40,445 bases of DNA from an uncultured Lachnospiraceae bacterium (GTDB taxonomy: Bacteria > Bacillota > Clostridia > Lachnospirales > Lachnospiraceae). This document shows, in pieces, positions 6,315 to 23,148 of the stretch. The position numbers were made by a program, and so were the translations under genes. Positions within the stretch are counted from its first letter, which is position 1; the number at the start of each line of letters is the position of its first letter. The notes below the pieces were generated by a model that saw nothing but the letters and a program-made list of their open reading frames with translations, was not told where the DNA came from and searched no databases. The DNA lies in contig CADABA010000018.1 of assembly GCA_902785985.1 (NCBI GenBank), positions 1-40,445 of the forward strand. Direction: 5' to 3'.

Positions 6315-7745
6315 TCAGCCCCATTTCACATTTGTGACATCTATTTCAACATAATTTCCACCAAATCCAAAACTCGACCCTACTCCCGCAAACGTTCCGC
6401 GTACCGTTAATTCATCCTCTTCCAACACTCTCTGGCTCAGACCTGAACTATCTTTCATTTCGAAGTGTATGTGCTCTGTATACCCGTTCAAATTCATATA
6501 GAAACTTAAACTTCCGTCTGAGCGATAGCCTACCCCGCTTACCCTGCCTGTATATTCCAGTTCTGTTCCCTTATATTCTTCCGGATATCTTAACAGACGT
6601 TCATATGTAATGTCAGTTTCGGAATAAGCCACGGCAGTACGGTTTACGAGCTCATCAACATTGATCAACACATAATCTCCACCAAATCCGAAGCTCGTCT
6701 CTACTCCCGCAAACGTTCCGCGTACCGCTAATTCATCTTCTTCCAACACTCTGGCGCTCAGACCTGAACTGTTTTTCATTTCGAAGTGTATATGCTCTGT
6801 ATACCCGTTCAAATTCATATAGAAGCTCAGTCTTCCGTCTGAGAAATAGCCAACTCCGCTTGCCCTGCCTGTATATTCCAGTTTTTTCCCGGTATATTTT
6901 TCCGGATATCTTAACAGACGTTCATATGTAATGTCGGTTTCAGAATAAGCCACGGCAGTATGGTTCACGAGCTCTTCTACATTGATTTTCACATAATCTC
7001 CACCAAATCCCCAACTCGTCTCTACTTCCTCAAACGTTCCGCGTACCGTTAATTCATCTTCTTCCAACACCCTTGCGCTCAGACCTGCACTGTCTTTCAT
7101 TTCGAAGTGTATATGCTCTGTATACCCGTTCAAATTCATATAGAAGCTCAGTCTTCCGTCTGAGAAATAGCCTACCCCGCTTACCCTGCCTGTATATTCC
7201 AGTTCTGTTCCCTTATATTTTTCCGGATTTCTCAGCAGTTCTTCATATGCAATTTCTGCAGCTTCAGCAGATTCCGTGCTGTGATCTTCTTTCGTTGCCG
7301 CACTGACATTTTTTTCTGTTTCTGCAGCTCTGGTTCCCTCAGTCACTGATTCTGACGCCGGTCTGCTTTCTGCAATTTCTGACGTTTCTTCTATCTTTTT
7401 TTCCTTAACCGTCGGTCTCGGCGCTGATTCACCTGATTCATTTTCTGCAGTTTCCGATACAGCACTCTGTGCAGCTTTCTCTTTGGCCGTCCCTGGAACT
7501 TTTTTATTTTCGGGAATCTCATTCTTTGATATGGAAGTCATCCCAAATGCGATAATGCATATACCCAAAAAGACCGTCAGTATAACAGACGCTCTCCGTA
7601 ACAGAACTAAACGCCTCTTTTTCCATGATGCATCTTTATGCGTCACATCCCTTTTATTCTCTTCGACATCCCGAACTCTTTTACCGCAATACGGGCAGTA
7701 AATCTGATCATCTTTTACCGGTTTCTGACAATGCGGACAAATCAT
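6315..7745 (-). CDS. Zinc-ribbon membrane protein with three OB-like repeats
   Basis: A 476-residue protein. It begins with a zinc ribbon (CPHC at 3-6, CPYC at 17-20), followed by a basic stretch, one transmembrane segment at about 47-69, and a low-complexity Glu/Ala/Ser/Thr linker to about 166. Three tandem repeats of 107, 107 and 96 residues follow (167-273, 274-380, 381-476). Each opens YERLLRYPEKY or similar and continues LEYTGRVSGVGY and FYMNLNGYTEHIHFEM, a pattern like tRNA_anti-like/OB-fold modules. The repeats probably lie outside the membrane. ATG 7745 is chosen for its GGAGGG ribosome binding site. It is the last gene of the long operon, 116 bases after the vWA gene. Its role there is unknown; a membrane sensor or effector is a guess. 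Confidence 0.75.
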   Translation of the reverse strand: MICPHCQKPVKDDQIYCPYCGKRVRDVEENKRDVTHKDASWKKRRLVLLRRASVILTVFLGICIIAFGMTSISKNEIPENKKVPGTAKEKAAQSAVSETAENESGESAPRPTVKEKKIEETSEIAESRPASESVTEGTRAAETEKNVSAATKEDHSTESAEAAEIAYEELLRNPEKYKGTELEYTGRVSGVGYFSDGRLSFYMNLNGYTEHIHFEMKDSAGLSARVLEEDELTVRGTFEEVETSWGFGGDYVKINVEELVNHTAVAYSETDITYERLLRYPEKYTGKKLEYTGRASGVGYFSDGRLSFYMNLNGYTEHIHFEMKNSSGLSARVLEEDELAVRGTFAGVETSFGFGGDYVLINVDELVNRTAVAYSETDITYERLLRYPEEYKGTELEYTGRVSGVGYRSDGSLSFYMNLNGYTEHIHFEMKDSSGLSQRVLEEDELTVRGTFAGVGSSFGFGGNYVEIDVTNVKWG

Positions 7746-7861
7746 TTCTTTAATCCCTCCCTTATTCACTGCACTCCCATCCATGAAAAGATCAGACAGG
7801 GTATATATAGATCGCCACGGCGTCCCTGCCCCGTCCTGCAAATACCAGGTACAGGGATGCG

Positions 7862-8557
7862 TCAGGACTCAGTAAAATCACTCCAGACTGTTATTCCTTC
7901 AAGATCCAGTTTTACACTGTCGCCGGGTGTGGACTGTGATGTGGTGGAAACACTCTTGCTTAACCAGGCAAAAAAATCCTGGAATTTCAATCCCTGAAGC
8001 TTCAAAGGAGCTCTCTTTGGTGAAAACTCACCCAGGACCTTCATATCCGCATCGCTTCCGATGCCGATCGGGAAAATGGTAAGCTTCCTGCTGTTGACAG
8101 CTTCTGTTGTCCGGGCAATTGCTCTGCTGAGCTCTCCTTTATCACCATTTGGAGCACCGTCCGTCATTAATACGAGCCAGGGCTGATAATAATCTACACC
8201 ATTGCTCTGGTACTCCTTTTTTCTCTGATCAAGCAGGTCCAGAGCCATATTGACCGCCTCCCCCATCGGAGTCATTCCACTCGCCTTTAATACGGGCGGG
8301 TCCGGCTGAATATCCAGGCTCGCAAAGTCACAAATGCACTCTGCCCGGCGTCCCCCAAAAGTAACAATACATATCTCCGCAGAATACAATGCAATATCAT
8401 CTTCCCGAATCGCCTCATAGAAAAGCCGGACTCCTTCATTTAACTCCTGAATCGCCTTGCCTGACATGGAGCCGCTGACGTCCAGACAAAGACAAACCGG
8501 AACCCTCGCGGTCGGATTATTCACTAAATCTTCCAGTCTCAAAAATAAATCAGTCAT
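7862..8557 (-). CDS. TerY-like vWA domain protein 2
   Basis: A 231-residue von Willebrand A protein. The metal site is visible: DVSGSMSG (Asp 26), a Thr in SGMTPMGEA and the Asp of LMTDGAPNGD. Such MIDAS proteins bind partners through a divalent metal. It is clearly a paralogue of the vWA protein at 21257-22036: both share NPTARVPVCLCLD at the start and FFAWLSKSVS, QSTPGD and VKLDL at the end. It lacks the insert of about 30 residues seen there. AAAGGAGG precedes the ATG by 7 bases. It lies near the downstream end of the long operon, after a gap of 124 bases. Probably an adaptor whose partner is phosphorylated by the kinase; this is inference. Confidence 0.9.
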   Translation of the reverse strand: MTDLFLRLEDLVNNPTARVPVCLCLDVSGSMSGKAIQELNEGVRLFYEAIREDDIALYSAEICIVTFGGRRAECICDFASLDIQPDPPVLKASGMTPMGEAVNMALDLLDQRKKEYQSNGVDYYQPWLVLMTDGAPNGDKGELSRAIARTTEAVNSRKLTIFPIGIGSDADMKVLGEFSPKRAPLKLQGLKFQDFFAWLSKSVSTTSQSTPGDSVKLDLEGITVWSDFTES

Positions 8558-8681
8558 TTTAATGCCTCCTTTTATCTTAAATCTTTTATCAATTTTCAGG
8601 CAATCGCAGAACAGACGGTGAGTGTCCGATCTGCTTATTCACACAATTCCATTTCGCACAGAGTATAAAATCACCTGCTGA

Positions 8682-10718
8682 TCAGGTGCGTAAAGAGCGA
8701 AGTTTTTCAGATGCTTTCCCATATCCCAATGATGATGCTTTTTCCAGCAGCGAACGTGCAGCAGTATCGTTTTTTTCCACTCCGACCCCGGCATAATACA
8801 ACATCCCCAAATTATATAATGCAGGCGGGAAATTCAATGCGGCTGCGTCTCTGAAATATCTTACAGCCTCCGCCAGATTTCCCGGGTCAGTTCCGATGCC
8901 GTTGTAACAGATCACAGCCAGACTGTACATTGCATATGCATCCTTTTTATCAGCAGCCTTTTTCAGCCAGTACTTTGCCTTCGATATATCTTTTGCATAA
9001 TATTTCCCCTCATGATATAACAATCCGATCGTTCTTAAGGCATAAATGTATTCCGCCCGGGCAGATAATTCCATCCAATATAATTTTGTACGGTCCCTGA
9101 CATGCAGCATTTCTGTGTTGAACAGCAGGTACGACAGCCTGTACTGCGCTGCAGGATCTCCCTCTGCCGCCCGGCAGAAAGCTGCAAAAAGAATGATCCA
9201 TTTGCTCCTGATCTCATTGACGCTCTGATTCAAATCTATCTTTCTGATGTCAGTATTGGGAGATAATGTATAAAGAATCCTTTTTGCCAGTTTTAAAGCC
9301 GGATCATATGCAGCCTCTTTATTAACGGCATATAAATCCAGATAACATTCGAAAGCCTTCCTCTCATTCCTGTCTTTATCCGCCCCTGATTCATACATCC
9401 CTGCTCTTTCAAGAAGTGCCTTCTCAGGATCTGACCGTTCATCATCTATGGTTTTTGCATGCTTTATTTCGGACTGCCGGCCGTAACTGTCTGTGTTCCT
9501 ACCGGCCGTCTTCAGCGGCTTGTTCAAGCCGCTCACCTGTTCAAGGACACGTCTCTGATCCGTTGATAACCTGACATGCAGCAGCTTTCCAATTTCCCCC
9601 GTCTCAAGGCAGAAGAGCGTATTGTTCAGAAGCCATTTGATCGGTGAAGCATTCCGGGTCCTGCGATATTCATCCGTCAGTTCTTTTATCTGCAGGTCCG
9701 TAATATTCCAGCAATAATTTCCGGTCCCGGGTTCCTGCGTTATGCCTGCTCCCAACGCACCGTCTTTTCTCAGGTATGTATTCGACTTATTTCCCGATCT
9801 GAATTTATATTTATAAAAGGGATGTTCTATAGTCCTGCTGTTTGTTCCGGATAAAAAAAGCCCCATAAAATCCCGAATCCCTGCATATTCACTGCCTGCA
9901 TACAGTTCTGTCAGTCCTTCAATTTCTTCCCCCATATCCATGCTGTAGGCACGGTACATAACCTCTTTGCCGGCAGAAAACACACCCAGATAATATGGAA
10001 AGAACATGGGCTCGGGAATTTCATGATCAGTCAGCGAGATCGAGATCTTCCCCTGCGGCAGCCCCAGTTCAATCGCCTTTTTCCCGGAATACGACGTTCT
10101 TTTTAATAATTCATTTATTTCCGGGAGCAGATTGGCTTTTTCCGGTCTCATAGGGATCCAGATTGATTTCAGATCATTTCGTTCTGTAATGTCCGTGTCA
10201 TCGATGGTTCTTGCCAATCTTATTATTCTTTCAAACGATTCAGGCATGATCTGCAGGGAGTATTGGTCAAAAATCTTCATCTCTTCGACTAACGAGGAGT
10301 GAACCATCTCATTTAACCTGACCGATTCGAATGCAGGGGTTGTCCCTTCCAGATATCTCCCCAGCTGAGAGTCGACCACCCTGAAATGCCCGCTCTCATA
10401 CAGATCCCTGAAGTATTCATCTGCAATCTGCGACGCTCTCCCCGACAGACCCAGTAATTGATACAGTTCCTGACGGCTCCTGACATAATGTTTTCTTTCA
10501 TTCTTTTCCGGAAAACGATCGCCCTGCGAATACCCGCAGATAAGCATATCCATATACCGTTCGATAATATGATAGCTCGGGTCATGATACTCAACATCAA
10601 TATTCACATGCATTCTGTATACCGGATGATATACCCTGAATATCCTTATTAAATTGGTGTTTTCTGACAGCAGATTGGCTAAGTAATTTATACCTACTCC
10701 AATATTTTCAGTAGTCAT
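8682..10718 (-). CDS. HTH-containing Sel1-repeat protein
   Basis: A 678-residue protein in two parts. Residues 1-420 are a region I cannot name; within it SRQELYQLLGLSGRASQIAD and the following helices look like a winged-helix or HTH element. After a linker (about 420-450), the C-terminal part (about 510-675) has Sel1-like repeats such as AKYWLKKAADKKDAYAMYSL and YNLGMLYYAGVGVEKND, which form helical protein-binding scaffolds. The start overlaps the helicase gene by 11 bases, so the two are probably made together and may form a complex. A short hairpin (CACCTG/CAGGTG) covers the stop codon. No enzymatic motif is evident. Confidence 0.75.
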   Translation of the reverse strand: MTTENIGVGINYLANLLSENTNLIRIFRVYHPVYRMHVNIDVEYHDPSYHIIERYMDMLICGYSQGDRFPEKNERKHYVRSRQELYQLLGLSGRASQIADEYFRDLYESGHFRVVDSQLGRYLEGTTPAFESVRLNEMVHSSLVEEMKIFDQYSLQIMPESFERIIRLARTIDDTDITERNDLKSIWIPMRPEKANLLPEINELLKRTSYSGKKAIELGLPQGKISISLTDHEIPEPMFFPYYLGVFSAGKEVMYRAYSMDMGEEIEGLTELYAGSEYAGIRDFMGLFLSGTNSRTIEHPFYKYKFRSGNKSNTYLRKDGALGAGITQEPGTGNYCWNITDLQIKELTDEYRRTRNASPIKWLLNNTLFCLETGEIGKLLHVRLSTDQRRVLEQVSGLNKPLKTAGRNTDSYGRQSEIKHAKTIDDERSDPEKALLERAGMYESGADKDRNERKAFECYLDLYAVNKEAAYDPALKLAKRILYTLSPNTDIRKIDLNQSVNEIRSKWIILFAAFCRAAEGDPAAQYRLSYLLFNTEMLHVRDRTKLYWMELSARAEYIYALRTIGLLYHEGKYYAKDISKAKYWLKKAADKKDAYAMYSLAVICYNGIGTDPGNLAEAVRYFRDAAALNFPPALYNLGMLYYAGVGVEKNDTAARSLLEKASSLGYGKASEKLRSLRT

Positions 10719-13700
10719 TATACTGTTTTACCTTTTCAATCGTGTCGGCCTTTATGCGATGCATGCCTTTATAGTTAATCAAATTGTCAAAATACCATCC
10801 GGCGGTATGATCCGGATCATGAACGGTCGGTTTTTTTGAAGAAATAAGCGTATTGGCATCCCCTACCATGATTAATAACGACTTCGCCCTTGTCATCATT
10901 ACATTTAATCTTCTGACTTCATTTAAGAATCCGATTCCACCCTTTTGATGATCCATATGGCTTCTTACAAACGAATAAATAATGATCTGATTGTCCCGGC
11001 CCTGAAATGAATCCAGGGTCTCTATCGCAAGATTGTTAACGAGCTCTTCTGTTTTTCCTTTATTATTCGCAAAATAAGGGTTCCGGCTTTCAATCGAGGT
11101 AAGGCTTTCCATTAAGAACTGTCCCGTATACTTACGGATCTTAGCAATCTGCGGGGAGTATGCTGTTATAACTCCTATATCACAGGTAAGCCGCCTTGCA
11201 TCAAAGACTTTTCCATATCTTCTGTTCTTTTCCGGCAATGCTGCATCTGTCAGCAGATCACAAATGATTTTACATAAGATCACTGCACATAATTTCGCCT
11301 CATACTCGTTGAAATAGGAGGTATTCTCTCTGCTTTCCGCCTTCTCTTTTGAAAGACCGGTATCAAAAAAATACATATTGTGATGAAATCCGCCAATTAC
11401 AATGCATTTGTTTTCCGGCTTTACAAAATCACTCTGATACTGTCCCTCATAAAAATACTCTTTAATAAATTCTGCGATGACAGGATGCATTCGGAATTGC
11501 TGATCCAGGACAACAATGTTCTGCGATTTTCCATTCTTTCGAAAATCCCTGAACAGTCTTTCAAATAAACTCTGCGAATAATTTTTTCCAATGAACTTCG
11601 ATATATCCTTTACTTCTTCAAAATATTCGCTCCTGTCAAATATCCGATTATTCTCGACATATTCGCAAAATTCCTGTTCCCCCATGGGAGGCAGCTGCAT
11701 ATGATCACCGATCAGAATAATTTTTTTCGCTTTCACCAGTGGAACGAACAGATTTTCCATCGGGATCTGGCCCGCCTCGTCCACAATCACGACATCATAT
11801 TCAACATTCTTAAAATGCGGATTTGTCTGTGCTCCGATACAGGTCGCGCCTATGATCTTAACGATTCTGAGCAGCGTTGACTCAAAACTGGACTGGTCCT
11901 GCTCCAGCTCACTGACCCAGTTGGCGAGTATTTTATTAAAGACGATGAGTCTTGCAGAGGCATTGTTATTTACCTGCTCAATCAGACCCGGATAATGCAG
12001 TAAATATTCGACCATCTGTTCTTCCGGCAGCGACGGGAACGGCAGCCAGGAGTAGAACGGATTCCCTTCATAATTTTCCAGAGCAAACCAGGCTGTATAA
12101 ATTTTTTTCCTGTTCAGGATACTTTTTTCGATCTCGCTGATTATTTCCTGTCTCTGCTGCCCCAGGATCAATGAAAAGCGCACCCTGTTATCTGTAATAT
12201 AATTGTACAGGACAGCCATGCTTTCAAATAAGCCGTCAAGAATCCGGGCCTGCTCCCTCAGAGCATCCCCGCGAACAGATATCTTTCCCTTTTTCACCAG
12301 ATCGAGAACAATTTGCTGATATCCGGAAACTATAGTGAGACCACCGGATACTTTATTTATTATATCAGACAGCTTCTCCCTGCCTAACAATAAAGAAAAT
12401 ATGCTGTGCCTGTCCAAAGCCTCAGAGACCACTCTCAAAGTCCGGCCCAATGAAACGAAGTCCTCCACTGCATTACATAACAGCACCGTATTTCCGTATG
12501 CTTTCTGCAGCATACGGATCTCTTTTTTTACGTCTTCCATATAAGCAGCCGCTGTTGTTCTGCTCTCGTGCATGATCTCTTTTTCAAGCTGCTCCGTAAT
12601 ATATCTGGGCAGCAGCTGCCTGACAGAATCCAATCGAATATTTTCTTCGTTCCCCAACCGCAGACACAGCATGTCTCTCTCATTGCACTTTTCCAGAACG
12701 TTGTCAACAGCCAGATTATTCTGCGAACAGACCAGTACCCGTTGTCCGTCTTTTACGAACTCTCTGATCATTTCAGTGATGATGGTTGTTTTCCCGGTAC
12801 CGGGCGGTCCCTGAACCAGCAGAAAATCATCGACCTCGAGAGCTCTCTGTACAGCCAGCTTCTGGCTGTCCGTCAATGCGTCAACATCCGAAGGCTTTTT
12901 ATAAGGGACATGCCGTACAATTGGCATGGTCGTTCTCTTTACCAGAATATCCAGCAGGTGCGTATTGACACTTTCACCCTTCTCAAGGCTTCCCAATGCG
13001 GATAATTTGTATCCGTAATCCGGACCGAGAAGCTCCAGGATGTATCCGTTCGGCGGAACATCGATGCGTGCAAGATTATTAAACTTGACAAAAAGCTCTG
13101 TCCCCTCTTTGCGTACAACAGTGCCTTTCGTTAATTCCCGCTCTTCCTGAAAAGTGATCTTTTTCCGTGTGCTGAAGGCGACTTTTGCACCCACGTTAAA
13201 ACGGTTCCATGACTCTGTATCACTGTTAAAAATCTGAAATGCCCTTACAGTCCCATCCTGCCGGCTTTCTCCCGTGCTTTTCCAGGCCGAGTACTGAAGT
13301 GCTTTTAAGAACTCCCTGTCATATTCCTTTTTAGCGGTAATAATCTCTTTCTGCCGCAGCAGAAAATTCATCTTTTCCGCTGCTTCCTGTCTTTTTATTA
13401 CAATGTCTTCCCTGTCCGGATGTTTATAAGAGAGTGCATTCCGTTCTATATAAGCCAGGAATTTTCCAAACCCATTCCTGTCAATAGGTCTGTTCTTCCC
13501 TAATACACATATATTTTCAGTCAGGACTCCTGTCACCAGAACTCTTCGAACTGAGGAATCGAGCGTATCCTCCTGCGAAACAGGCTTAAAGCTGTTGACC
13601 ATGAATCCGATCGCCGTATTTTTATCATCACGATCATATTTTTTATTCGCCGCAAAAGAGTATGATTCTGTGAACAGCCTGTAATACGGACGACCGTCGT

Positions 13701-13872: not shown

Positions 13873-13934
13873 AGCCTTTTCCTCATCAACCTTCAATTAG
13901 CGCATTCATCTCCTGACTGAAATCACGGAGGATT

Positions 13935-14720
13935 CTAAAAAACAAGTGCGTAAGGCAGAATTGCAGTTGTCTCAGACTGATATATTGATGGGTAATCCTC
14001 CATTGACAGGACGCTTCCCGCATTTATATATTGCCTTTTTCGGACCGGATCATACTTACACCTGAAAACAGCCTTCTCAAAAGCGGCGATATTCCTGGCC
14101 GCTTCTGCAGGCAGATCCCCCTGCAGCACAAATCTCATGCCCGCGGCAATCGGTTTTGAAATATTCACTGTTTCTGCAACATCAAACCGGTTCCCGTTGA
14201 TCGAGAAGGTCTTTCCCTTCAGGTATGACTCACGGACTTCTCCGGCAGTACACAGATAGATGTCATACTGTCCGTTCGGCACCATGACAGTTTCATACGG
14301 ATTCTTTTTCCGGGGATTAAAATACACTGCCTCGTCAACCTGATCCAAACCCGAAACGATGTATTTATATCCATGCTCAAAAGGAATACCGGCGGCATTT
14401 GTATTCAGTTTTCTGAACAGCTCTGAACCGTCTCTGTAATTCTTCAGCAGTTCAAGGCTGATGTATTTAGCGGCTTTTATTTTTTTTAGTTTTCGATAGT
14501 TCTCATCCCCGTCTACGATCATCGAGTCATATAAATAGGGTTTATACACAAACCCATGGGGAAACAGATCACTGACAGAGATCACTTTATGACCCGAAAA
14601 ACTGCGCACTATTGATTCCGCAATATCATCCGCCTTCGGAAAACTTCGATCTGCATGAATTTCTGATAATTTAAGAGTAATTCTCAGCTCAATATGATTA
14701 ACCGATTGATTTGACAGCAT
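13935..14720 (-). CDS. Csm4-like RAMP (Cas5-group) protein
   Basis: A 261-residue protein with features of the type III Csm4 (Cas5) group. It has an N-terminal strand-helix unit, SVSDLFPHGFVYKPYL (about 48-62) corresponding to the Csm4 S-D-x-F-P...P-K-P segment, KLKKIKAAKYISLELL (about 77-92) corresponding to the K-K-x-K stretch, and a late INAGSVLSMEDYP that matches the glycine-containing C-terminal loop. In type III complexes Csm4 binds the crRNA 5' tag and the Cas10 palm. Here it overlaps the Cas10-like gene by 23 bases, which fits a tight heterodimer. ATG 14720, with GAGG 6 bases before it, is chosen over a TTG at 14750. There is no Cas7-type partner nearby. The assignment rests on motifs and context. 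Confidence 0.62.
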   Translation of the reverse strand: MLSNQSVNHIELRITLKLSEIHADRSFPKADDIAESIVRSFSGHKVISVSDLFPHGFVYKPYLYDSMIVDGDENYRKLKKIKAAKYISLELLKNYRDGSELFRKLNTNAAGIPFEHGYKYIVSGLDQVDEAVYFNPRKKNPYETVMVPNGQYDIYLCTAGEVRESYLKGKTFSINGNRFDVAETVNISKPIAAGMRFVLQGDLPAEAARNIAAFEKAVFRCKYDPVRKRQYINAGSVLSMEDYPSIYQSETTAILPYALVF

Positions 14721-15888
14721 TCCATTCCTCTTCTGTGCAGTACCTGCCAAGCAGATCCCTCATTCGAATAATATTCACAGGGATACTGTTTCGTTCCTCA
14801 GGTGACAGCTTACTGAAACATCGCATATAAACGTCATGGAGTACAGCAATCTGCTCCCACTGCAGTGTAATTACCCGTCCGCCCGATCTCATCGCAACGG
14901 AATTTTTCCCGGGAACGGTCTTCGCTTTTTCAAGCATCTCTTCGCCTTCATTGTAATAATAAAGCAGTGGGACCGCTCCCAGATCATTTCTTATCTCAGT
15001 CACACTTCCCGATATTCCAACGAAATCCTTATATAAAGACAGATATGGGTTTTCAGAAATTTCATTCAGAATACGCGATCTTACACGGGTAATTACTCCC
15101 AGATAGTCTTCAATGGCCGCAATGGCAAAAATATCATCCCCACCGACAAAAATTATTGAGGCATTCTTCTCATTGGCGAACGAACTTTTTAAAACTGTAT
15201 CCAACGCCCCGCTGACCTGCTTACTTCTGTCTACAGTGTGTATTCCTCTGAAGAACAGCCCCAGATTATCGAGATCGAATTTCAAGGCTGCTGTCCTTTT
15301 ATTTTTCGGCCTGATTTCTGATTCTTCAGAGCCCGGCATTCTCTCAGGAGCGAATTCAGATCCGTCTACATCTTTCTCATCTATGAACAGTGTATTCACA
15401 CAGTGATATTTCTGGAATGAAACAGCTCTTCCCAGCTGTGATAAAACATTCCCATCAGTATATAAACGCTCATCAAATTTACGGACTACGGCCTCACAGA
15501 GCCCGTAGAACATTTCCAGCTGACCCTCCGTCGCCTTATACACTTTCAGCTGGATCTCTTTTACAGCGTTATCGATCTCGTCCATTGAGATCTTTCTTCT
15601 GACGGCACATATGATTTTTCCACTTGAGCTCTGAACCGGGTAGAAATTCTTCCCGCCGAATCGGGTGCAAAGATTTTCCTCGATGGTTCCTGTAAGCCAT
15701 TGAATATATTCTGATCTCCTGCTTACACCGGAAACCGTTGAATCTGTACCAATGCTTCCAAAAATGAAGGATTGTATACCCGACAGTTCTATCTCCAAAA
15801 TGGTATTCTTTTTGTGGAACATAAACCACTTTGGTACTGCCTCGTAAAACAGATACTTCTCTGCACCCATAGAATTCACCCGTTTCAT
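14698..15888 (-). CDS. Cas10/Csm1-like palm protein (putative nucleotide cyclase)
   Basis: A 396-residue protein with the two palm-like halves of Cas10. LEIELSGIQSFIF (31-43) is the Cas10 first-palm signature, followed by SRRSEYIQWLTGTI. The second palm has KFDLDNLGLFF (203-213) and FVGGDDIFAIAA (247-258): the GGDD at 249-252 and Asp 205/207 are the expected metal ligands of a cyclic-oligoadenylate synthase. FVGISGSVTEI, then GEEMLEKAK and GKNSVAM complete the palm. It is half the size of Csm1 (about 750-850 residues), with no N-terminal HD nuclease and little room for the zinc and helical domains. It starts directly after the Sel1 gene stop; ATG 15870 is an alternative start. The conserved GGDD predicts an active cyclase or polymerase. 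Confidence 0.8.
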   Translation of the reverse strand: MKRVNSMGAEKYLFYEAVPKWFMFHKKNTILEIELSGIQSFIFGSIGTDSTVSGVSRRSEYIQWLTGTIEENLCTRFGGKNFYPVQSSSGKIICAVRRKISMDEIDNAVKEIQLKVYKATEGQLEMFYGLCEAVVRKFDERLYTDGNVLSQLGRAVSFQKYHCVNTLFIDEKDVDGSEFAPERMPGSEESEIRPKNKRTAALKFDLDNLGLFFRGIHTVDRSKQVSGALDTVLKSSFANEKNASIIFVGGDDIFAIAAIEDYLGVITRVRSRILNEISENPYLSLYKDFVGISGSVTEIRNDLGAVPLLYYYNEGEEMLEKAKTVPGKNSVAMRSGGRVITLQWEQIAVLHDVYMRCFSKLSPEERNSIPVNIIRMRDLLGRYCTEEEWNAVKSIG

Positions 15889-18800
15889 TTATGAAAACAA
15901 TTTGAACCACAATCCGCCTGTACGCCTGCCGGCCTCTTCATCACCGTTTTCAGCCGCATTGACCAGCCATGTTCTTGCAAGTTTTTTATTCCTGGCTACA
16001 CCTTTTCCTTTTGCATACATATCTGACACCTCTAACATGGCATCCACATCACCTCTGGACGCAGCTTCCAGATAATACTGAAAAGCACGGGCATAATCCT
16101 GAGAGGCAAATCGTCCCTCAGCATAGATCGTACCGACCAAGAACATCGCATCCACCACGCCCGCATCGGCAGCCTTTTCAAGATACTTGACAGCCTTACC
16201 CGAATCATGATTTTTGCACTCATTCTCAAGAATCATTTTACCCAGCCTGTAGCAGGCACCTATATGACCTGAATCTGCTGCAACCGTCAGCAGTTCCTCA
16301 GCCTTCCCGAAGTCCTGCTCAATGTGTTTGCCCTGCAGGTACATGATCCCCAGTCTCCAGGAAGCCTCCACATGTGCGGCATCCCGTTCAAGTGCCTTTC
16401 GGTACCATTCTATTGCCTTCCTGGCGCTTTGATCGGTTCCATGTCCCAGATAGTACATTTCCGCAAGATTAAATCGGATCTGCGCATCTGATTCGTCTGC
16501 ACACACACTGTAATACCTGAATGCTTCAGCATAATTCTGTTCAACATGTTTCCCGTAAAAGAACAGATCTCCAAGACACCGGCCGGCCCGGATCATCACT
16601 TCGTTATCCGAATTTTCCTGAGCTTTTTTGTACCATACTACAGCATTTTCAAAGTCGGACAGTTCATCTGATGCATACAGTGCTCCAAGATTCAACTGTG
16701 CTTCTGCCAAAAAATGGGGACTTGAAGCTGCCTTTGTATACCACCGGACAGCCTCATCGAGATTCTTCTCAACACCAACCCCCAATTCATACATAGCGCC
16801 GACTTTATTACATGATTCTTTATGCCCCTTCAGAGCCGCCTGAAAAATATAATGAAAAGCACGGGTATAATCCTGAGGGACCAGTTTTCCCGCACCATAT
16901 ATCATACCTGTCCTGAACATTGCCTCCGCCACGCCTGCATCGGCAGCCTTTTCAAGATACATCCTGGCCTGGCCCGGATCATGGTTCCTGCACTGATCCT
17001 CAAGAATCATCACACCCAGCCTGCAGCAGGCATCCGGATCTCCTGCATCCGCCGCAACTGCCAATAACTCCTCTGCCTTCTCACAGTTCTGCTCAACGTG
17101 TATGCCTTCCAGGTACATTACACCCATTCTCCGGGAAGCCTCCACATGTGCGGCATCCTGGTCAAGCACCTTTTTGTACCAGTACACTGCTTTCTCTGCG
17201 TTCTTACCGTTTCCCAGTCCCAGGTAATACATCTCTGCCAGATTAAACTGAATCTGAGCATCCGATCTGTCTGCACACACACTGTAATATCTGAAGGCTT
17301 CAGAATAGTTCTGCTCAACATGTTTCCCATAGAAGAGCAGATCACCCAGGAATCGGCTGGCCTTCACTGTCACATCTTTGTCTGAATTAGCCTGGGCTTT
17401 TCTGTACCAGACTACAGCATTTTCAAAATCAGACAGTTCCTCTGATGCATACAATTCTCCAAGGCTCAGCTGAGCTCTTGCCATATTATGGGGACTCGAA
17501 GCCGCTTTTGTATACCATCGGACAGCCTCGTCGAGATTCTTCTCAACACCCCGTCCGATTTTATACATGAAGCCAACCTGATCACACGCCAATTTATGGT
17601 CCTTCCCGGCAGCCTGCATAAAATAGCGAAAAGCTTTTGAATAATCTTTTATTAAACCGCTGCCTTCATAGTAGCACCGACCCAGATTCCATAATCCGGG
17701 CGCATATCCCTGGCTTGCAGCTAACGTGTAATATTCAACTGCCTGAACGTTATTTTTCCGAATTCCTGTGCTCCAGCCTTCCTTATAGAATCGTCCGCAC
17801 ATATTCTGTGCTTCTGCCAGGCCCTGCTGCGCAGCCTTCTCGTAATATTGAAAAGCCAGGTCATATTCTCTCCTTGCATGGTAGATACCGGCGAGTTCAT
17901 ACTGTGCATCCCTATATCCCGCTTCAGCCGATAATCTGAACCATTTCTCCGCATCCGCCTTTGACTGAGAGATATGAAATCCGTTTTTATACATGACACC
18001 CAGGTTATATGCACTGCGGGGTATTCCCTGATTGGCGCCGGACAGCACATATTTATATGCCGTTTCATAATTCACTTCCGTCCCCAGGCCGTACAGATAC
18101 GCATTCCCCAATTCATCCCCGGCCAGATCATTTCCCGCTTCTGCTGCAATTTGAAAATATGGTATCGACTTAACTGCGTCTTTTGAGACTCCGGCGCCCT
18201 GCGCAAGCATAGACCCTGCTTTGTAAGCGGCTTCAGCATGTGTGCTTTTATACTCCGCATCTGCATTCTTATGATCTGCCGCTTTGGAATACCAGCGAAA
18301 TGCTGCCGAAAGGTCCTTTTCAGTGCCGGCACCCTCCTCATACATTTTTGCAACCATATACTGTGAAGCTATGCCGTTCGGATCCTGTGCCGCAGTATAA
18401 AATAAGTCGAACGCCTTTGCCGGATCCTTCTCAACGCCCTGTCCGCAGTAATAGTCATACCCCAGCGCATGATATGCTCTTAAAGAACCTTTTGAGACTC
18501 CCCGCCTGTGATAGTTTACAGCCAGTTCGTAATTCGGTCTTCCATCACCTGTACCGGATCCTTCCTGATACATGGAGCCCAGGGCGAGGATCGCTTCCAG
18601 GTAATCTTCTTTCGCAGCTTTTTCATACCATATAAGAGCAGCACTTTCATCTTTCTGCACACCCTTTCCATAGCGCAGAAAATCTGCGACCCGGTAAGAA
18701 GCCTCCACATGTCCCTGTTCTGCCGCTTTTTTGTACCAGGCATACGATAATTCATAATTCTCTGTAATACCGAATCCCCCAAGCCTCAGCACTTCACCGG

Positions 18801-20247
18801 CTGCTGCCTGACTGGCGGCCGTATCACACGCGGGCTTTAAGGATGCGATCCGTATCACTGAGGAATAATCTTTGTCTCTGTTGATTCCGAATCTGTAAAT
18901 CTCAATCAGTTTCTGCTGCGCGTCCCGGTTTTCCCTTAATGCGCATTGTTCATACCAGCCGATAGCAGCTTCTATGTCTTTCGTTCCATTGAGGCCGTTC
19001 CACAGGATTTCCGCTGTTTCAAACATTGCGTCACTGTGTCCGTTCTCAGCTGCAATAAGAAAATAAGGATATGCCCTGATAAAGTCCGATTCAGATGAGA
19101 GAACTTTCTGTTTATACAGCATAGCCAGATTATACGCAGCCAGCGCATGGTTCTGGTCAGCTGCCATTTTAAAATACACTGCAGCCTTTTTATAATCTCG
19201 TTCGACCCCTATGGATGCATTGCCGATGCAGTAGATACCTGCCACCATATATTGTGCAGCAGCATCTCCATGTTCCGCGGCTTTCTGATACCACTCAAAA
19301 GCCTTTGAGCCATCTTTAGGCATACCATAGCCATGAAAATAGAACTCTGCTACATTTCTCTCAGCTTCTACGCTGAAACTGGCTGCTTTTAAATAATAAT
19401 CGAATGCCTGCCTGCAGCCTTCGGGCGTGTTTTGGTTTTTATATATCTGCGCCAGCTCAATCAAAGCAGGATTATAGCCCTGCTCCAGCGATAAGCAGAG
19501 CCAGCGAATTGCTTCCTGTTCATCTGCCTTTACTCCCCGGCCTTCCAGAAATAAAAGTCCCAATTCATACTGCGCCGCATAATGCCGGTTGCCGGCAGCT
19601 GCCAGATAATATTCATACGCCCTGTCATATTCGCCTTGTTGTGCATAAATCTGCCCTAATGCATACTGTGCCTCTTCATTGTCTCTGTCTGAAGCATTCT
19701 CATACCACTCAATTGCATTCTGAAGATCCTGCTCAACACCGTTTCCATCATAATAAAGATCCGCAAGCTTCTTCTGACCATCCGCATTGCCGAGAACAGC
19801 TGCTATGGCATAATACTTTACTGCTTTTTTTAAATCGGCCTCCGGGACATCATGATCAGGATTTAAGAACCCGCTCTCCAGGAATCGGGCCATGGAATAA
19901 TATGCACTGTCATTCCCTCCCCTGGCAGCGCGTTCATACCAGCCATAGGCCCTTTCATAGTTCTGATTGTCTTCAGAAAACGCTCCCATTCTGTACTGAG
20001 CTTCTCTGTCTCCTTTTTTGGCAAGCTCTAATGTCTTTTTGAACTCGTTGTACCTTTTTTTATGATGCTTATCGGAAGAAGCCGATTTTACAGATTCCGT
20101 CAGAACGGCAGACGCATCTCTGTCTGATTTGATCTGTCCGTTATTCAACGAAACATGCGCGTTCACATCTGCTTTTCTGTTCTCCCTCTGATCCGTCTGC
20201 TTCTGACCGGAAATATTCAGCTCCTCCGTCAATTCAGGTATCTTCAT
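15889..20247 (-). CDS. Giant Sel1-repeat protein (1452 residues)
   Basis: Apart from a polar N-terminus of about 65 residues, the whole protein is a chain of Sel1-like (TPR-related) helical repeats of about 36 residues, roughly 36-38 copies, each of the form A-x-x-W/Y-Y-x-x-A-A-x-x-G-x-x-x-A-x-Y-x-L-G. Such proteins are protein-interaction scaffolds; no catalytic motif, signal peptide or membrane segment is seen. Residues about 880-1400 hold a recent tandem duplication with a period of 258 residues. GAGGAAG precedes the ATG. It follows the PP2C gene by 14 bases and abuts the Cas10-like gene, so stoichiometric production with the Cas10/Csm4 pair is likely. It may bind the phosphorylated or nucleotide-bound components; this is inference. 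Confidence 0.9.
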   Translation of the reverse strand: MKIPELTEELNISGQKQTDQRENRKADVNAHVSLNNGQIKSDRDASAVLTESVKSASSDKHHKKRYNEFKKTLELAKKGDREAQYRMGAFSEDNQNYERAYGWYERAARGGNDSAYYSMARFLESGFLNPDHDVPEADLKKAVKYYAIAAVLGNADGQKKLADLYYDGNGVEQDLQNAIEWYENASDRDNEEAQYALGQIYAQQGEYDRAYEYYLAAAGNRHYAAQYELGLLFLEGRGVKADEQEAIRWLCLSLEQGYNPALIELAQIYKNQNTPEGCRQAFDYYLKAASFSVEAERNVAEFYFHGYGMPKDGSKAFEWYQKAAEHGDAAAQYMVAGIYCIGNASIGVERDYKKAAVYFKMAADQNHALAAYNLAMLYKQKVLSSESDFIRAYPYFLIAAENGHSDAMFETAEILWNGLNGTKDIEAAIGWYEQCALRENRDAQQKLIEIYRFGINRDKDYSSVIRIASLKPACDTAASQAAAGEVLRLGGFGITENYELSYAWYKKAAEQGHVEASYRVADFLRYGKGVQKDESAALIWYEKAAKEDYLEAILALGSMYQEGSGTGDGRPNYELAVNYHRRGVSKGSLRAYHALGYDYYCGQGVEKDPAKAFDLFYTAAQDPNGIASQYMVAKMYEEGAGTEKDLSAAFRWYSKAADHKNADAEYKSTHAEAAYKAGSMLAQGAGVSKDAVKSIPYFQIAAEAGNDLAGDELGNAYLYGLGTEVNYETAYKYVLSGANQGIPRSAYNLGVMYKNGFHISQSKADAEKWFRLSAEAGYRDAQYELAGIYHARREYDLAFQYYEKAAQQGLAEAQNMCGRFYKEGWSTGIRKNNVQAVEYYTLAASQGYAPGLWNLGRCYYEGSGLIKDYSKAFRYFMQAAGKDHKLACDQVGFMYKIGRGVEKNLDEAVRWYTKAASSPHNMARAQLSLGELYASEELSDFENAVVWYRKAQANSDKDVTVKASRFLGDLLFYGKHVEQNYSEAFRYYSVCADRSDAQIQFNLAEMYYLGLGNGKNAEKAVYWYKKVLDQDAAHVEASRRMGVMYLEGIHVEQNCEKAEELLAVAADAGDPDACCRLGVMILEDQCRNHDPGQARMYLEKAADAGVAEAMFRTGMIYGAGKLVPQDYTRAFHYIFQAALKGHKESCNKVGAMYELGVGVEKNLDEAVRWYTKAASSPHFLAEAQLNLGALYASDELSDFENAVVWYKKAQENSDNEVMIRAGRCLGDLFFYGKHVEQNYAEAFRYYSVCADESDAQIRFNLAEMYYLGHGTDQSARKAIEWYRKALERDAAHVEASWRLGIMYLQGKHIEQDFGKAEELLTVAADSGHIGACYRLGKMILENECKNHDSGKAVKYLEKAADAGVVDAMFLVGTIYAEGRFASQDYARAFQYYLEAASRGDVDAMLEVSDMYAKGKGVARNKKLARTWLVNAAENGDEEAGRRTGGLWFKLFS
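16030..17600 (-). repeat. 774-base tandem duplication inside the Sel1 gene
   Basis: Two long copies, offset by 774 bases (258 residues), are nearly identical over stretches. For example GACAGCCTCATCGAGATTCT near 16747 recurs with one change near 17521. Both copies encode EKNLDEAVRWYTKAASSPH, ELSDFENAVVWY and YGKHVEQNY. The limits given are approximate. Confidence 0.8.
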
Positions 20248-20261: not shown

Positions 20262-21242
20262 TTATTTCGAGCGGCGATACATCCCGCTGTCCACTGTCAC
20301 AAGTCCCTTCTGAACGAGTCTGCTCATTCGCTTCTTTACATGTTTCTCCTTAACATGAAGAAATCCCTGCAATTGATGCACATTCTTTGGAGTATCCAAA
20401 AAATCAAGCAGTGCACTGTATCTTTCAGCCTGTTTCCCGGCATCTTTACCGGGCTTCAGCCCGAGCAGTCTTATCAGATCTCCGGTTTCAATGGCTGTCC
20501 GCTGATATTTTGTCGGATCGACCATGATCATCAGGCTGCAGTCGTCGGTCGTTTTCCTGGTAAAAAGCTCTCTTACAATCTCGTCTATATTTTTCTGCGC
20601 TGCTTCGTCGGTACAATAAGCGCAGCTTGATGCGATCCTGCTTACGACAGGCGCAAGAGTTCTGTTTCTTTTATCATATAAGCTGTTCTCTGTCCCATCG
20701 GACATCAAAATAAATGCCTGAATTTCTGATGCACTTCCCTTTGCCAGCCGCATCATTCTTTCCGCATTCTCTGAGGTAGTAAAATATGTTTCGTTTAAAA
20801 ATTCTCCGTTATCAGGATGTGTTGCTACTCTCAGCTCATTGTTTTTGATGTAGCCGATTACACCGTCCCCCAAATGAATAAGTATATACTTTTCATTTTT
20901 AACACCGGTCACTAATAAGGTAGAGGCCAGATCTCCCGGTTCGCAGCCCATCCCGCTGCTGATTTCATTTATTTTGGTCAAAACCGTTTTCATGAGTATC
21001 TGCCTTACCTCTGCGGTATTCTCATTGGCATAAATCTCATCAAAGTGGTCACACATATACGCACAGATATGTCTGGCGATCCCTTCCGCTCCGAACTGAG
21101 AGTATCTGGCGGATCCTGCTCCATCTGCAAGCGCTGCCACCTGACAGTCTGATTTATTCAGATGCGCTACTCTGTCCTGACACGGAATATCACTTTTTTT
21201 ATGTCCGCTTCCCTGTGAACAGCTTCCTGTTGATTTCCACAT
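20262..21242 (-). CDS. PP2C-type protein phosphatase with C-terminal wHTH
   Basis: A 326-residue PPM/PP2C phosphatase. Metal-binding motifs are present: an Asp in CQDRVAHL, LADGAGSARYSQFGA (the D-G-x-G of the family), HLGDGVIGY and LMSDGTENSLY. The active site should dephosphorylate Ser/Thr targets of the kinase encoded two genes upstream. The last 55 residues (LLDFLDTPKNVHQLQGFLHV and the KRMSRLVQKGLVTV stretch) form a winged-helix-like element. ATG 21242, with GGAGG 6 bases before it, is preferred over an ATG 30 bases upstream. Gaps to both neighbours are 14 bases. Kinase, vWA and PP2C together make the TerY-P triad. Confidence 0.9.
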   Translation of the reverse strand: MWKSTGSCSQGSGHKKSDIPCQDRVAHLNKSDCQVAALADGAGSARYSQFGAEGIARHICAYMCDHFDEIYANENTAEVRQILMKTVLTKINEISSGMGCEPGDLASTLLVTGVKNEKYILIHLGDGVIGYIKNNELRVATHPDNGEFLNETYFTTSENAERMMRLAKGSASEIQAFILMSDGTENSLYDKRNRTLAPVVSRIASSCAYCTDEAAQKNIDEIVRELFTRKTTDDCSLMIMVDPTKYQRTAIETGDLIRLLGLKPGKDAGKQAERYSALLDFLDTPKNVHQLQGFLHVKEKHVKKRMSRLVQKGLVTVDSGMYRRSK

Positions 21243-21256
21243 AATTCGCCTCCGCG

Positions 21257-22036
21257 TCACAGTTCTCCCCAACCGTTATCACCTAAAATACCTTGGAGGT
21301 CGAGCTTTACTGTATCTCCCGGTGTGGATTGAGATGTCTTTGAGACACTCTTACTCAGCCAGGCAAAAAACTCCGAAAATTTCAATCCCTGCAGTCTTAA
21401 CGCCATTCTTCCCGGTGAAAACCGATTAAGCGTCTCCAGATCGGCTTCTTTTCCGATTCCGATAGGGAAAACGGTCAGTTTTTTTTCGTTGACCATTGAT
21501 GCCGTACGGGAAATTGCTCTCTCCAATTCTTCAGCGGACCCATTCGGTTCGCCATCGGTCATCAATACAAGCCATGGCTGATAGTAGTCTACTCCGGCAT
21601 CCTTATATGCCTGCTTTCTTTGCTCCAATAAATCCAAAGCAAGATTGACTCCTTCACCCATGACCGTATCGCCTTCGGCCTTAAGCTTCGGCACACTCTC
21701 CACACTGCTTAACCCCATGAAATCCATCATGCATTTCGCAGTGGAATCAAAAGTAACAATACAGACATCTGCAGCATAAAGAGCAATATCATCCTCCTTG
21801 ATCGCCTCAAAAAACTGATCAATCCCTTTCTCCATTTCAGAGATCCGGGTAACAACGTCACCGGTAACTACATTATATGTCTTTCCATCCCTGAACACCG
21901 TCCTGCCGGTCCTGGTGTATTCACCGCCTTCAACGGTTCCCATGGAGCCACTTGTATCAAGGCATAAACAGACCGGTACTCTTGCAGTCGGATTATCCAC
22001 CAGTTCCTGAAAACCTACAATTCCTTCGTTATTCAT
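21257..22036 (-). CDS. TerY-like vWA domain protein 1
   Basis: A 259-residue vWA protein with an intact metal site: LDTSGSMG (Asp 27), a Thr in GDTVMGEG and the Asp of LMTDGEPNG. After the first motif there is an insert of about 30 residues (GGEYTRTGRTVFRDGKTYN) that the paralogue at 7862-8557 lacks. TerY-type vWA proteins occur with a kinase and a PP2C phosphatase, as here, and probably present or assemble their targets. The second of two close ATGs (22036) is chosen because AGGAGG then lies 8 bases away; from 22042 the spacing would be too short. Gaps of 14 bases to both neighbours indicate one operon. Confidence 0.92.
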   Translation of the reverse strand: MNNEGIVGFQELVDNPTARVPVCLCLDTSGSMGTVEGGEYTRTGRTVFRDGKTYNVVTGDVVTRISEMEKGIDQFFEAIKEDDIALYAADVCIVTFDSTAKCMMDFMGLSSVESVPKLKAEGDTVMGEGVNLALDLLEQRKQAYKDAGVDYYQPWLVLMTDGEPNGSAEELERAISRTASMVNEKKLTVFPIGIGKEADLETLNRFSPGRMALRLQGLKFSEFFAWLSKSVSKTSQSTPGDTVKLDLQGILGDNGWGEL

Positions 22037-22050
22037 TTCCATCTCCTCCT

Positions 22051-23148
22051 TTAATAATAGCCATAGCCTTTATACTGGGTCGGATATAACTCCAGCGACT
22101 CGGGATCATAACTTTCTATAGCACCGCTGTCAAAATCCGTCAGATAGGCCGTAAAGATATCTAACCATTCATAAGCATCCAATCGGGTCCGTTCTTTTGC
22201 ATATTTCCCATCTTTCAAAAACGTCTCTGCAAAAGCCGTTTTTACATAGGGCATTAAGTGACTCCACATGTATGACCAGCCGCCTACCGGAGCCGAATCC
22301 TTATAAGAATCACCTATTCTTCCATAAGGAAAGTCCATGTTCTTTATGTTTTCCGCCTGGTCTTCTCCGCCCTGCTGTGCATACGGCGTTTTTCCCATAA
22401 GCATGATCATAAAAAGCAAGGTTGCGATCGAAAATCCCTCATGCCCTTTTGTTCTCAAAAAAGAACCAAAGTGTATACCCTGTATTTCAGGAGCGGTAAA
22501 CGGTACCGTACCTACCGGACAGGGAAAGCCCTCGATCTGATAACTGTCTGTATCGACAAAATAGATTTCTTCCGGCGACCTGACTAAAATATTATTTTCG
22601 TTAATGTCGCCGATAATGATATTCCTGTCATGCAGATATTTGATTTTTTCCAGAACAGATACACACAGACGAACCAGGTCGCGTCTGTTCCAATCAGGGA
22701 AGAACTTTTTCTGAAGAGGCCTTACAAACAGCTTTTTTAGTATCTGCCCGTCCCCTTTGGGCATTAAATAGCCTGTGAACTGCTGATGCCGATTGAAGAG
22801 CATGGCAACCGGATAACAGATACCATCGCATTCAATTCGTTTGCTGAGCATTAATTCTATTTTCTCTTTTGTCCTCAGCGTAGTATGATCCGCATGGTAG
22901 ATCTTTGCCAGAAAAGGAGTATTCGTTTCATAGATCGTTCCCTCCCCTCCTTTAGAGACCTTTTTCCCCAAACGGATCTTAATAGTATCCCCCGCGAGCA
23001 CAATGCTGCCTTCGTCAGGAACTTCTTCCTCCAGAGGAATTACCGAATTGTCACCCGGTATAATCTCAGAGGAAATCAGGTAACGTTCTTCGGGAAAAGC
23101 CGTTGTCATATATGCTTCTCTTACTCTTTTTCTGTCAAATCTATACAT
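22051..23148 (-). CDS. TerY-P-type Ser/Thr protein kinase
   Basis: A 365-residue soluble kinase. From the ATG at 23148 it has a glycine loop SKGGEGTIYE (GGEG 67-70), the ATP-anchoring Lys in FLAKIYH (82), a catalytic loop written GDINENNILV (180-189) in place of HRDxxxxN, DTD (199-201) in the DFG position and TAPEIQG (219-223). The GD[IL]N-x-x-N form is typical of kinases coupled to TerY vWA and PP2C proteins. There is no membrane segment. The frame is open up to a TTG at 23232; ATG 23148 is chosen because AAGGA lies 7 bases before it. First gene of the operon. Confidence 0.88.
   Translation of the reverse strand: MYRFDRKRVREAYMTTAFPEERYLISSEIIPGDNSVIPLEEEVPDEGSIVLAGDTIKIRLGKKVSKGGEGTIYETNTPFLAKIYHADHTTLRTKEKIELMLSKRIECDGICYPVAMLFNRHQQFTGYLMPKGDGQILKKLFVRPLQKKFFPDWNRRDLVRLCVSVLEKIKYLHDRNIIIGDINENNILVRSPEEIYFVDTDSYQIEGFPCPVGTVPFTAPEIQGIHFGSFLRTKGHEGFSIATLLFMIMLMGKTPYAQQGGEDQAENIKNMDFPYGRIGDSYKDSAPVGGWSYMWSHLMPYVKTAFAETFLKDGKYAKERTRLDAYEWLDIFTAYLTDFDSGAIESYDPESLELYPTQYKGYGYY

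What the first reader, a model, noticed from the sequence alone, without database searches (positions are those of the whole stretch)
6315..23148. A ten-gene operon joins a TerY-P phosphorylation triad to a Cas10/Csm4 core
Kinase, vWA and PP2C genes (14-base gaps) are followed by a giant Sel1 scaffold, the Cas10/Csm4 pair, an SF1 helicase, an HTH/Sel1 protein, a second vWA protein and a membrane zinc-ribbon protein, all in one direction with overlaps or short gaps and one strong promoter. TerY-P triads are known to occur in predicted conflict and stress systems; direct union with a type III-like cyclase suggests a signal system controlled by reversible phosphorylation. All frames are open, in contrast to the decayed genes around it. 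This is my best candidate for an undescribed system.
Basis: partly seen in the sequence, partly recalled or inferred. Interest (0 to 1): 0.95.

Follow-up and report, generated by a model that had tools for sequence, protein, structure and literature searches.

The report
Guide-free Cas10 alarm with helicase sensor
A bacterium carries an operon in which a Cas10-like and a likely Csm4-like gene, with no Cas7 gene or CRISPR array detected beside them, sit with a UPF1-type helicase, a predicted winged-helix partner and a kinase/phosphatase/vWA module; relatives of the same four-gene core have CARF-HEPN genes (predicted RNases) nearby, so it is predicted to be a phage alarm that would need no guide RNA.

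Summary
In four relatives with DNA (Cas10L 27-33% identical to the window's) the same four genes stand in the same order: Cas10-like, likely Csm4-like, UPF1/SMUBP2-type helicase, and a protein with a predicted N-terminal winged helix ("wHTHX"). The vWA query finds nothing in those four genomes; all four have CARF-HEPN genes (Csx1/Csm6-type) within about 10 kb of the core, three a Csx20 ring-nuclease domain. No Pfam RAMP match (the family of Cas7) lies at the five loci; three of the five genomes, two of them 99% complete, have none at all, while the genomes behind ten canonical Cas10 loci all have one. Cas10L starts at palm 1 (no HD nuclease), keeps GGDD and falls in a separate clade. The helicase/wHTHX pair resembles the CnuH-CnuE pairing of CoCoNuT systems, some of which also carry TerY-P. 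Best reading: a guide-free cyclic-oligonucleotide alarm, likely helicase-triggered; here the TerY-P triad is an accessory and CARF effectors lie on another contig. Messenger, trigger and defence role are untested. I met no such system in the papers searched.

The parts
22051..23232 (-). Ser/Thr kinase of the TerY-P type, without fused zinc ribbon or OB fold in the Pfam scan (in-frame ATG at 23148)
   Evidence: PF00069 E 2.9e-8; GDINENN and DTDSYQ motifs; the two closest homologues, 83 and 93% identical, are 367 and 378 aa and carry PF00069 only
21257..22042 (-). vWA1, TerY-like, MIDAS DTSGS
   Evidence: PF00092 E 1.2e-7; motif
20262..21272 (-). PP2C phosphatase with a possible C-terminal winged-helix-like tail
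   Evidence: PF13672 E 1e-43; weak Csa3 hit E 0.0054 on residues 293-333
15889..20247 (-). 1452-aa Sel1-repeat protein, likely scaffold
   Evidence: 24 Sel1 stretches, E 1.1e-194
14698..15888 (-). Cas10L: palm1-palm2 Cas10 without HD nuclease, GGDD present
   Evidence: PF22335; two stretches align to Csm1 residues about 233-398 and 491-684; separate clade
13935..14750 (-). Csm4L: likely Cas5/Csm4-family partner of Cas10L
   Evidence: weak PADLOC/NCBIfam hits; Foldseek ranks 1-5 are Csm4 chains of Csm1-Csm4 structures (best E 8.1e-4, TM 0.35), on a low-confidence model, pLDDT 51
10708..13896 (-). UPF1/SMUBP2-type SF1 helicase with a long insert between Walker A (363) and Walker B (706)
8682..10718 (-). 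wHTHX: conserved ~400-aa N-terminal part (predicted winged helix) plus C-terminal Sel1 repeats
   Evidence: conserved in 5 of 5 loci; helix-helix-strand-strand at residues 82-125 of a pLDDT 61 model; profile match to the helicase-partner ORF of Azospirillum, rank 1 of 573, E 9.2e-5
7862..8557 (-). vWA2, TerY-like, 58% identical to vWA1
6315..7841 (-). zinc ribbon, one TM-like stretch, three similar C-terminal repeats
   Evidence: PF13240 E 9.2e-7; TM-like stretch at residue 86; repeats read in the translation
23384..23412 (-). promoter-like site upstream of the operon (consensus match only)
8672..8688 (-). terminator-like stem at the end of wHTHX (consensus match only)

Best explanation
The operon carries a four-gene core (Cas10-like, a likely Csm4-like gene, UPF1-type helicase, a predicted winged-helix partner), conserved in order in five loci with no Cas7 or CRISPR array detected beside it, that likely works as a guide-free alarm: the helicase pair would sense foreign or aberrant nucleic acid and switch on the Cas10-like cyclase. 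Shown: the genes, their order, the catalytic motifs, the missing HD nuclease, no RAMP-family match and no array-like repeats at the five loci, and CARF proteins near the core in 4 of 4 relatives. Inferred: Cas10L and Csm4L form the heterodimer seen for Csm1-Csm4 and make cyclic oligoadenylate; the helicase/wHTHX pair replaces the crRNA-target complex as trigger; CARF-HEPN proteins degrade RNA and Csx20 removes the signal. In this genome CARF-HEPN, Csx20 and Cas6 genes are on another contig, so the messenger would act in trans. The kinase/PP2C/vWA triad would set the threshold by reversible phosphorylation, with the Sel1 protein as scaffold; that part is the least supported.
For: Same four genes, same order in window, L003, L004, L020, L021. 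CARF-family proteins near the core in 4 of 4 relatives: CARF-HEPN in L004, L020 (two), L021, and L025 (same contig as L003, about 9 kb downstream of Cas10L); Csx20 in L003, L020, L021. RAMP PF03787 at E<=0.01: 0 matches in G434, G641, G710; in G000 and G433 only on other contigs; control: 10 of 10 genomes behind canonical Cas10 loci have RAMPs. No array-like repeats in the five loci. Cas10L aligns to Csm1 from palm 1 on; GGDD and DxDNLG invariant in 21 aligned sequences; one side of a 100/99-supported branch against 10 canonical Cas10s. Helicase-partner match.
Against: No biochemical or phage data. Csm4L rests on weak hits and a low-confidence model. PF03787 does not match Csm4L itself, so a diverged Cas7 could be missed too. 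The array test is weak: the same script found repeats in only 3 of 10 canonical Cas10 loci, and PMC12669027 says III-G loci show no array either. No CARF hit in the window operon. wHTHX matches only one of eight scored helicase-partner ORFs clearly; profile against the five-partner profile gave E 0.035, probability 1.5, and plain HMM search was not significant. G000 holds a type III-D-like set and G433 a RAMP locus with CARF-HEPN and repeats.
Confidence: 0.6

Rival explanations
1. It is a reduced type III CRISPR effector that borrows Cas7 and crRNA in trans from a CRISPR locus of the same genome.
For: G000 and G433 each hold RAMP genes on another contig; G000 has Cas6 and a 7-copy array-like repeat on C8.
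Against: G641 and G710 (99% complete) and G434 have the core but no RAMP match anywhere. No array-like repeats at the five loci (weak test). Cas10L is a separate clade from the ten canonical Cas10s tested.
Confidence: 0.12
2. One reading: a kinase/phosphatase-controlled Cas10 system in which the TerY-P triad is the essential sensor.
For: One operon, kinase, PP2C and vWA motifs present; vWA genes bracket the block; TerY-P accompanies UPF1-type helicase pairs in CoCoNuT Type II and III-A (PMC11090510).
Against: Triad hits beside the core in 0 of 4 relatives; vWA1 relatives in 0 of 4 relative genomes at E<=1e-8.
Confidence: 0.15
3. Inhibitory signalling as in Panoptes: Cas10L is always on and its product holds an effector in check until phage enzymes destroy the messenger.
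For: Panoptes uses a stand-alone Cas10-like cyclase (PMC12657230, passages); Cas10L also lacks guide parts.
Against: mCpol matches only at E 0.009, under its cut-off; Cas10L keeps both palms and a likely Csm4-like partner; relatives carry CARF-HEPN genes, whose known kin in type III are switched on by the messenger (PMC6452270).
Confidence: 0.08
4. A housekeeping stress or RNA-surveillance pathway, not phage defence.
For: UPF1 helicases act in RNA surveillance (PMC11090510); TerY-P was hypothesised to be a metal-sensing switch (same paper).
Against: Rare and patchy: 1 of 392, 1 of 42, 3 of 391 and 1 of 398 genomes, own genome included (in the large samples at most four candidates per genome were scored); Csx20 and CARF-HEPN neighbours are typical of defence (general knowledge).
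Confidence: 0.1

Closest known systems
Type III-A CRISPR-Cas (Csm)
   Same: Cas10 palm domains with GGDD, likely Csm4-like partner, CARF-HEPN effectors and Csx20 in relatives
   Different: no Cas7 match, no HD domain in Cas10L, no array-like repeats at the loci; helicase/wHTHX pair added
CoCoNuT Type II / III-A (CnuHE with TerY-P; PMC11090510, passages only)
   Same: UPF1-type SF1 helicase followed at once by a predicted wHTH protein; TerY-P triad; duplicated vWA genes around an insert
   Different: Cas10L-Csm4L where CoCoNuTs have McrBC-type CnuB/CnuC; no McrB/McrC hit among the ten operon proteins
Panoptes (mCpol; PMC12657230 passages; PMC12657218 seen in a listing only)
   Same: Cas10-like cyclase without CRISPR
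   Different: mCpol has a single palm, a 2TM-beta effector and makes c-di-AMP; here two palms, likely Csm4-like partner, helicase, CARF-HEPN in relatives
Mokosh (MkoA; PADLOC label)
   Same: helicase of the same family (PADLOC MkoA E 4.3e-112)
   Different: no phospholipase-D nuclease hit among the ten operon proteins (that MkoB is a PLD protein is recalled)
TerY-P triad
   Same: vWA, PP2C and kinase in one operon
   Different: kinase shows no fused zinc ribbon or OB fold; a separate zinc-ribbon protein closes the operon
vWA-kinase-phosphatase genes reported near CRISPR loci (PMC10910872)
   Same: vWA with kinase and phosphatase genes beside CRISPR-type genes
   Different: those are tied to CRISPR arrays; their gene sets were not compared here
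Postulated signalling ancestor of class 1 CRISPR (PMC6452270, passages)
   Same: Cas10-type cyclase plus CARF-HEPN, no guide
   Different: the core here already has a likely Csm4-like gene, so it may equally be a later reduction of type III

Membership tests
Type III CRISPR-Cas | Cas10 large subunit | tested here: met
Type III CRISPR-Cas | Cas5/Csm4 subunit | tested here: inconclusive
   weak profile hits; Foldseek ranks 1-5 are Csm4 chains, on a pLDDT 51 model
Type III CRISPR-Cas | Cas7 backbone | tested here: not met
   no PF03787 match at any of five loci; none in three of five genomes; control genomes 10 of 10. The model also misses Csm4L, so a diverged RAMP could escape it
Type III CRISPR-Cas | CRISPR array at the locus | tested here: not met
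   weak, since only 3 of 10 canonical Cas10 loci showed repeats in the stretch held
CoCoNuT | UPF1-like helicase (CnuH) | tested here: met
   family level only, no CnuH tree made
CoCoNuT | downstream elongated wHTH (CnuE) | tested here: inconclusive
   the CnuE sequences of the paper were not compared
CoCoNuT | McrB/McrC homologues (CnuB/CnuC) | tested here: not met
   no McrB/McrC hit in the Pfam scan of the ten operon proteins
Panoptes | single-palm mCpol with 2TM-beta effector | tested here: not met
   mCpol E 0.009, 16.8 bits against cut-off 26.4; palm 1 and palm 2 both aligned; the 2TM-beta effector was not searched for
Mokosh | MkoA helicase plus PLD nuclease | tested here: not met
   helicase met; no PLD hit in the ten operon proteins
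TerY-P | vWA + PP2C + kinase in one operon | tested here: met
TerY-P | kinase fused to zinc ribbon or OB fold | tested here: not met
   Pfam scan shows kinase domains only
cOA signalling | synthesis of cyclic oligoadenylate | not testable with these tools
   needs purified protein

The most novel reading that the evidence does not exclude
A guide-free branch of the Cas10-Cas5 machine: a UPF1-type helicase with its winged-helix partner does the sensing that crRNA does in type III CRISPR, the Cas10-Csm4 pair makes the alarm molecule, CARF-HEPN RNases execute and Csx20 resets. It would be a present-day counterpart of the signalling system postulated as ancestor of class 1 CRISPR, or its mirror image, a type III system that threw away its guide. 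In this genome it is placed under a TerY-P phospho-switch and feeds CARF effectors of a CRISPR locus elsewhere in the genome.
Probability: 0.35. Interest if true: 0.95.

Novelty: new variant of a known kind. Interest (0 to 1): 0.85.

Why it matters
In type III CRISPR, cOA synthesis by Cas10 depends on recognition of a cognate target RNA (PMC12657230, passage). A conserved Cas10-Csm4 core with no Cas7 or array detected at its locus, tied to a helicase pair and to CARF effectors in relatives, would show that the alarm can be run by an innate sensor. It would give a concrete, testable object for the open question of how class 1 CRISPR effectors began or how they shed their guides; the authors of PMC6452270 call the signalling ancestor the weakest part of their scenario (passage). 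It would also extend the UPF1-type helicase/wHTH pair, described with McrBC, to second-messenger signalling.

Tried and rejected
Plasmid and phage collections for Cas10L: no match. Viral contigs: none of 80 pattern-matched stretches encodes a relative. Contig-length fingerprints to link kinase or CARF clusters to the Cas10L clusters P0001-P0022: no shared longest-contig value among the rows shown (kinase: best 120 of 797), so nothing learnt. The 348-aa (L003) and 368-aa (L004) proteins beside the CARF genes are not alike and were set aside. Fold of wHTHX: the listed matches are to Sel1 and other helical-repeat proteins, so nothing for its N-terminal part.

wHTHX against helicase partners. Plain HMM search with the wHTHX N-terminal profile: best partner ORF (L029) rank 2 of 573, E 0.19; Azospirillum partner rank 6, E 1; the reverse search put the wHTHX ORFs of L020 and L021 at ranks 3 and 4 of 575, E 0.44 and 0.64; none significant. 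hhalign of the same profile against single ORFs: Azospirillum partner rank 1 of 573, E 9.2e-5, Vibrio partner rank 3, E 0.021; the other six partner ORFs listed ranked 19, 31, 33, 37, 83 and 109; the L030 partner was not picked up by my list filter. The same profile against a five-partner profile: E 0.035, probability 1.5. hhalign of the whole alignments A4 and A6: E 0.0029, probability 10.6; A4 against the DarT-bearing partner E 0.54 and against Csm4L E 0.75.

Array script. It also flags coding repeats (L024 14252-14413 lies in an ORF of repeated peptides), so its hits are 'array-like' only; it flagged L006, L010, L013 of the ten canonical loci, and L023 and L024. Chance adjacency of the core was rejected because of five-locus conservation.

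Literature: ten searches. Passages, not whole papers, seen from PMC10910872, PMC11090510, PMC12669027, PMC11229360, PMC12657230 and PMC6452270. No description of a Cas7-less Cas10-Csm4-helicase system was met there; supplementary files, most subscription papers and the 2012 TerY-P paper were not seen. The Csm1-Csm4 heterodimer as a unit is taken from PDB titles.
Full report
What is there. Ten minus-strand genes run from 23232 to 6315: kinase, vWA1, PP2C, a 1452-aa Sel1 protein, Cas10L, Csm4L, SF1 helicase, a 678-aa protein with Sel1 repeats at its end (wHTHX), vWA2, and a zinc-ribbon protein with one TM-like stretch. Family scans support these labels, except Csm4, which is weak, and the HTH, which no family model sees. 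Catalytic motifs are present.

Relatives. The Cas10L search gave 22 proteins in 5.8 billion. A scan of GTDB genomes gave 12 loci, of which L003 and L004 carry the Csm4L, helicase and wHTHX genes next to Cas10L; none of the other ten shows these genes, and all ten lie in genomes with RAMPs. Genome searches added L020 (G641) and L021 (G710). Counts, own genome included: 1 of 392 genomes in the order, 1 of 42 in the genus, 3 of 391 in the class, 1 of 398 in the phylum sample; 2 of 32 and 2 of 391 in the family and class of G641. These samples overlap, and in the large ones at most four candidates per genome were scored.

The conserved core. In window, L003, L004, L020 and L021 the order is Cas10L, Csm4L, helicase, wHTHX, on one strand. 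Csm4L of L020 and L021 is recognised by place and alignment; it has no tblastn hit to the window's. Identity to the window protein is 27-33% for Cas10L, 20-28% for Csm4L, 30-37% for the helicase and 20-34% for wHTHX. No hit of the window kinase, vWAs or PP2C lies in L003, L004, L020, L021 or L025 at E 1e-4, and the vWA1 query finds nothing at E<=1e-8 in the four relatives' genomes. So the pairing of triad and Cas10 is, so far, seen once in five.

No guide machinery found. PF03787 (RAMPs, including Cas7) has no match at E<=0.01 in G434, G641 or G710; in G000 and G433 the matches lie on other contigs, where G000 holds a type III-D-like set (L022); the G433 set was not typed. As control, 10 of 10 genomes behind the canonical Cas10 loci have RAMPs, with coordinates that fit the contig ranges. 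PF03787 does not match Csm4L, so the model can miss diverged RAMPs. No array-like repeats were found in the window, L003, L004, L020 or L021, but the same script flagged only 3 of 10 canonical loci (L006, L010, L013), so this is weak, and arrays elsewhere in the four relatives' genomes were not looked for except on L023 and L025.

The cyclase. Cas10L aligns to Csm1 of solved complexes in two stretches, about 233-398 and 491-684, so the HD end is missing. GGDD and DxDNLG are invariant in the 21 aligned sequences. In a tree of 26 Cas10L and 10 canonical proteins the two sets fall on either side of a branch with support 100/99; some end branches are long and the tree is unrooted. Csm4L modelled poorly (pLDDT 51), yet the five best Foldseek matches are Csm4 chains of Csm1-Csm4 structures and the sixth a chain of a Csm complex; only the first passes E 0.001.

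The effectors. L004 has a CARF-HEPN, a CARF and a 368-aa gene just upstream of Cas10L; L020 has a CARF-HEPN upstream and a CARF-HEPN-Csx20 downstream of the core; L021 has the latter; L003 has a CARF gene upstream beyond a run of other genes of about 7.5 kb, a Csx20 downstream on the other strand, and a CARF-HEPN further down the same contig. The window operon has no CARF hit, but G000 (78% complete) has a CARF gene, a CARF-HEPN, a Csx20 and a Cas6 on contig C8.

The sensor. The helicase belongs with SMUBP2 and UPF1. In plasmids 77 records hold a related helicase; I looked at nine, and in the eight annotated ones it is followed within 31 bases or with overlap by one ORF, unnamed in seven and DarT-bearing in one; the ninth, Azospirillum, is not annotated and shows the same by ORFs. 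[quoted passage not shown] The N-terminal profile of wHTHX picks the Azospirillum partner first of 573 ORFs (E 9.2e-5) and the Vibrio partner third (E 0.021), over 115 and 117 columns of the same region; the other listed partners score like background, and the comparison with a five-partner profile is weak (E 0.035). I take the kinship as likely, not proven.

Mechanism. Sensor (helicase pair), signal maker (Cas10L-Csm4L), executioner (CARF-HEPN) and reset (Csx20) form a coherent chain in the relatives. The order of events is inferred. In the window genome the triad, the Sel1 protein and the zinc-ribbon protein are added, and the executioners would be shared with a CRISPR locus elsewhere.

Novelty. 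The 2025 classification (PMC12669027, passages) lists reduced type III forms, some without arrays, but none without Cas7 in the passages shown; Panoptes (PMC12657230) is a CRISPR-less Cas10-like cyclase of a different build; vWA, kinase and phosphatase genes near CRISPR loci were reported in PMC10910872. PMC6452270 postulates a Cas10 plus CARF-HEPN ancestor without guide. I therefore call it a new variant of cyclic-oligonucleotide alarm systems, with the bolder reading kept in the section on the most novel reading.

Noticed in passing
G000 contig C8, locus L024 5622-11352 and 15853-16290: Cas6, CARF, Csx20 and CARF-HEPN genes with a 7-copy array-like repeat in the window's genome, apart from its Cas7-type genes on C85.
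   Followed up: partly
L003 2585-9887: A run of genes that reads like a Tad-pilus cluster (by eye, not scanned) lies between the CARF gene and Cas10L.
   Followed up: no
L004 18484-20937: TIR-domain protein with TPR stretches on the opposite strand beside the core.
   Followed up: no
L003 16360-18528: BspA-type leucine-rich repeats fused to an AAA ATPase directly downstream of wHTHX.
   Followed up: no
L028 3280-17039 (Azospirillum lipoferum plasmid): UPF1-type helicase and partner ORF beside ORFs that read as PP2C/NERD/kinase, kinase, BrxL-like and PglZ-like (by eye, not scanned).
   Followed up: partly
L034 3592-10340 (Nostoc plasmid): Helicase of the family with a DarT-bearing partner inside an annotated BREX locus.
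   Followed up: no
L026 9238-10542 (Aliarcobacter plasmid): Helicase partner with a phospholipase-D-like hit (PF13091 E 4.6e-6, just under cut-off).
   Followed up: no
window 25712-29258: Neighbouring genes split over overlapping frames (they read as a sugar hydrolase and a PTS permease, by eye), unlike the open frames of the operon.
   Followed up: no
G000:C21:16990-17538: A third TerY-like vWA gene in the window's genome, 37% identical to vWA1.
   Followed up: no
window 7862-8557 and 21257-22042: Two vWA paralogues, 58% identical, bracket the PP2C-Sel1-Cas10L-Csm4L-helicase-wHTHX block.
   Followed up: partly
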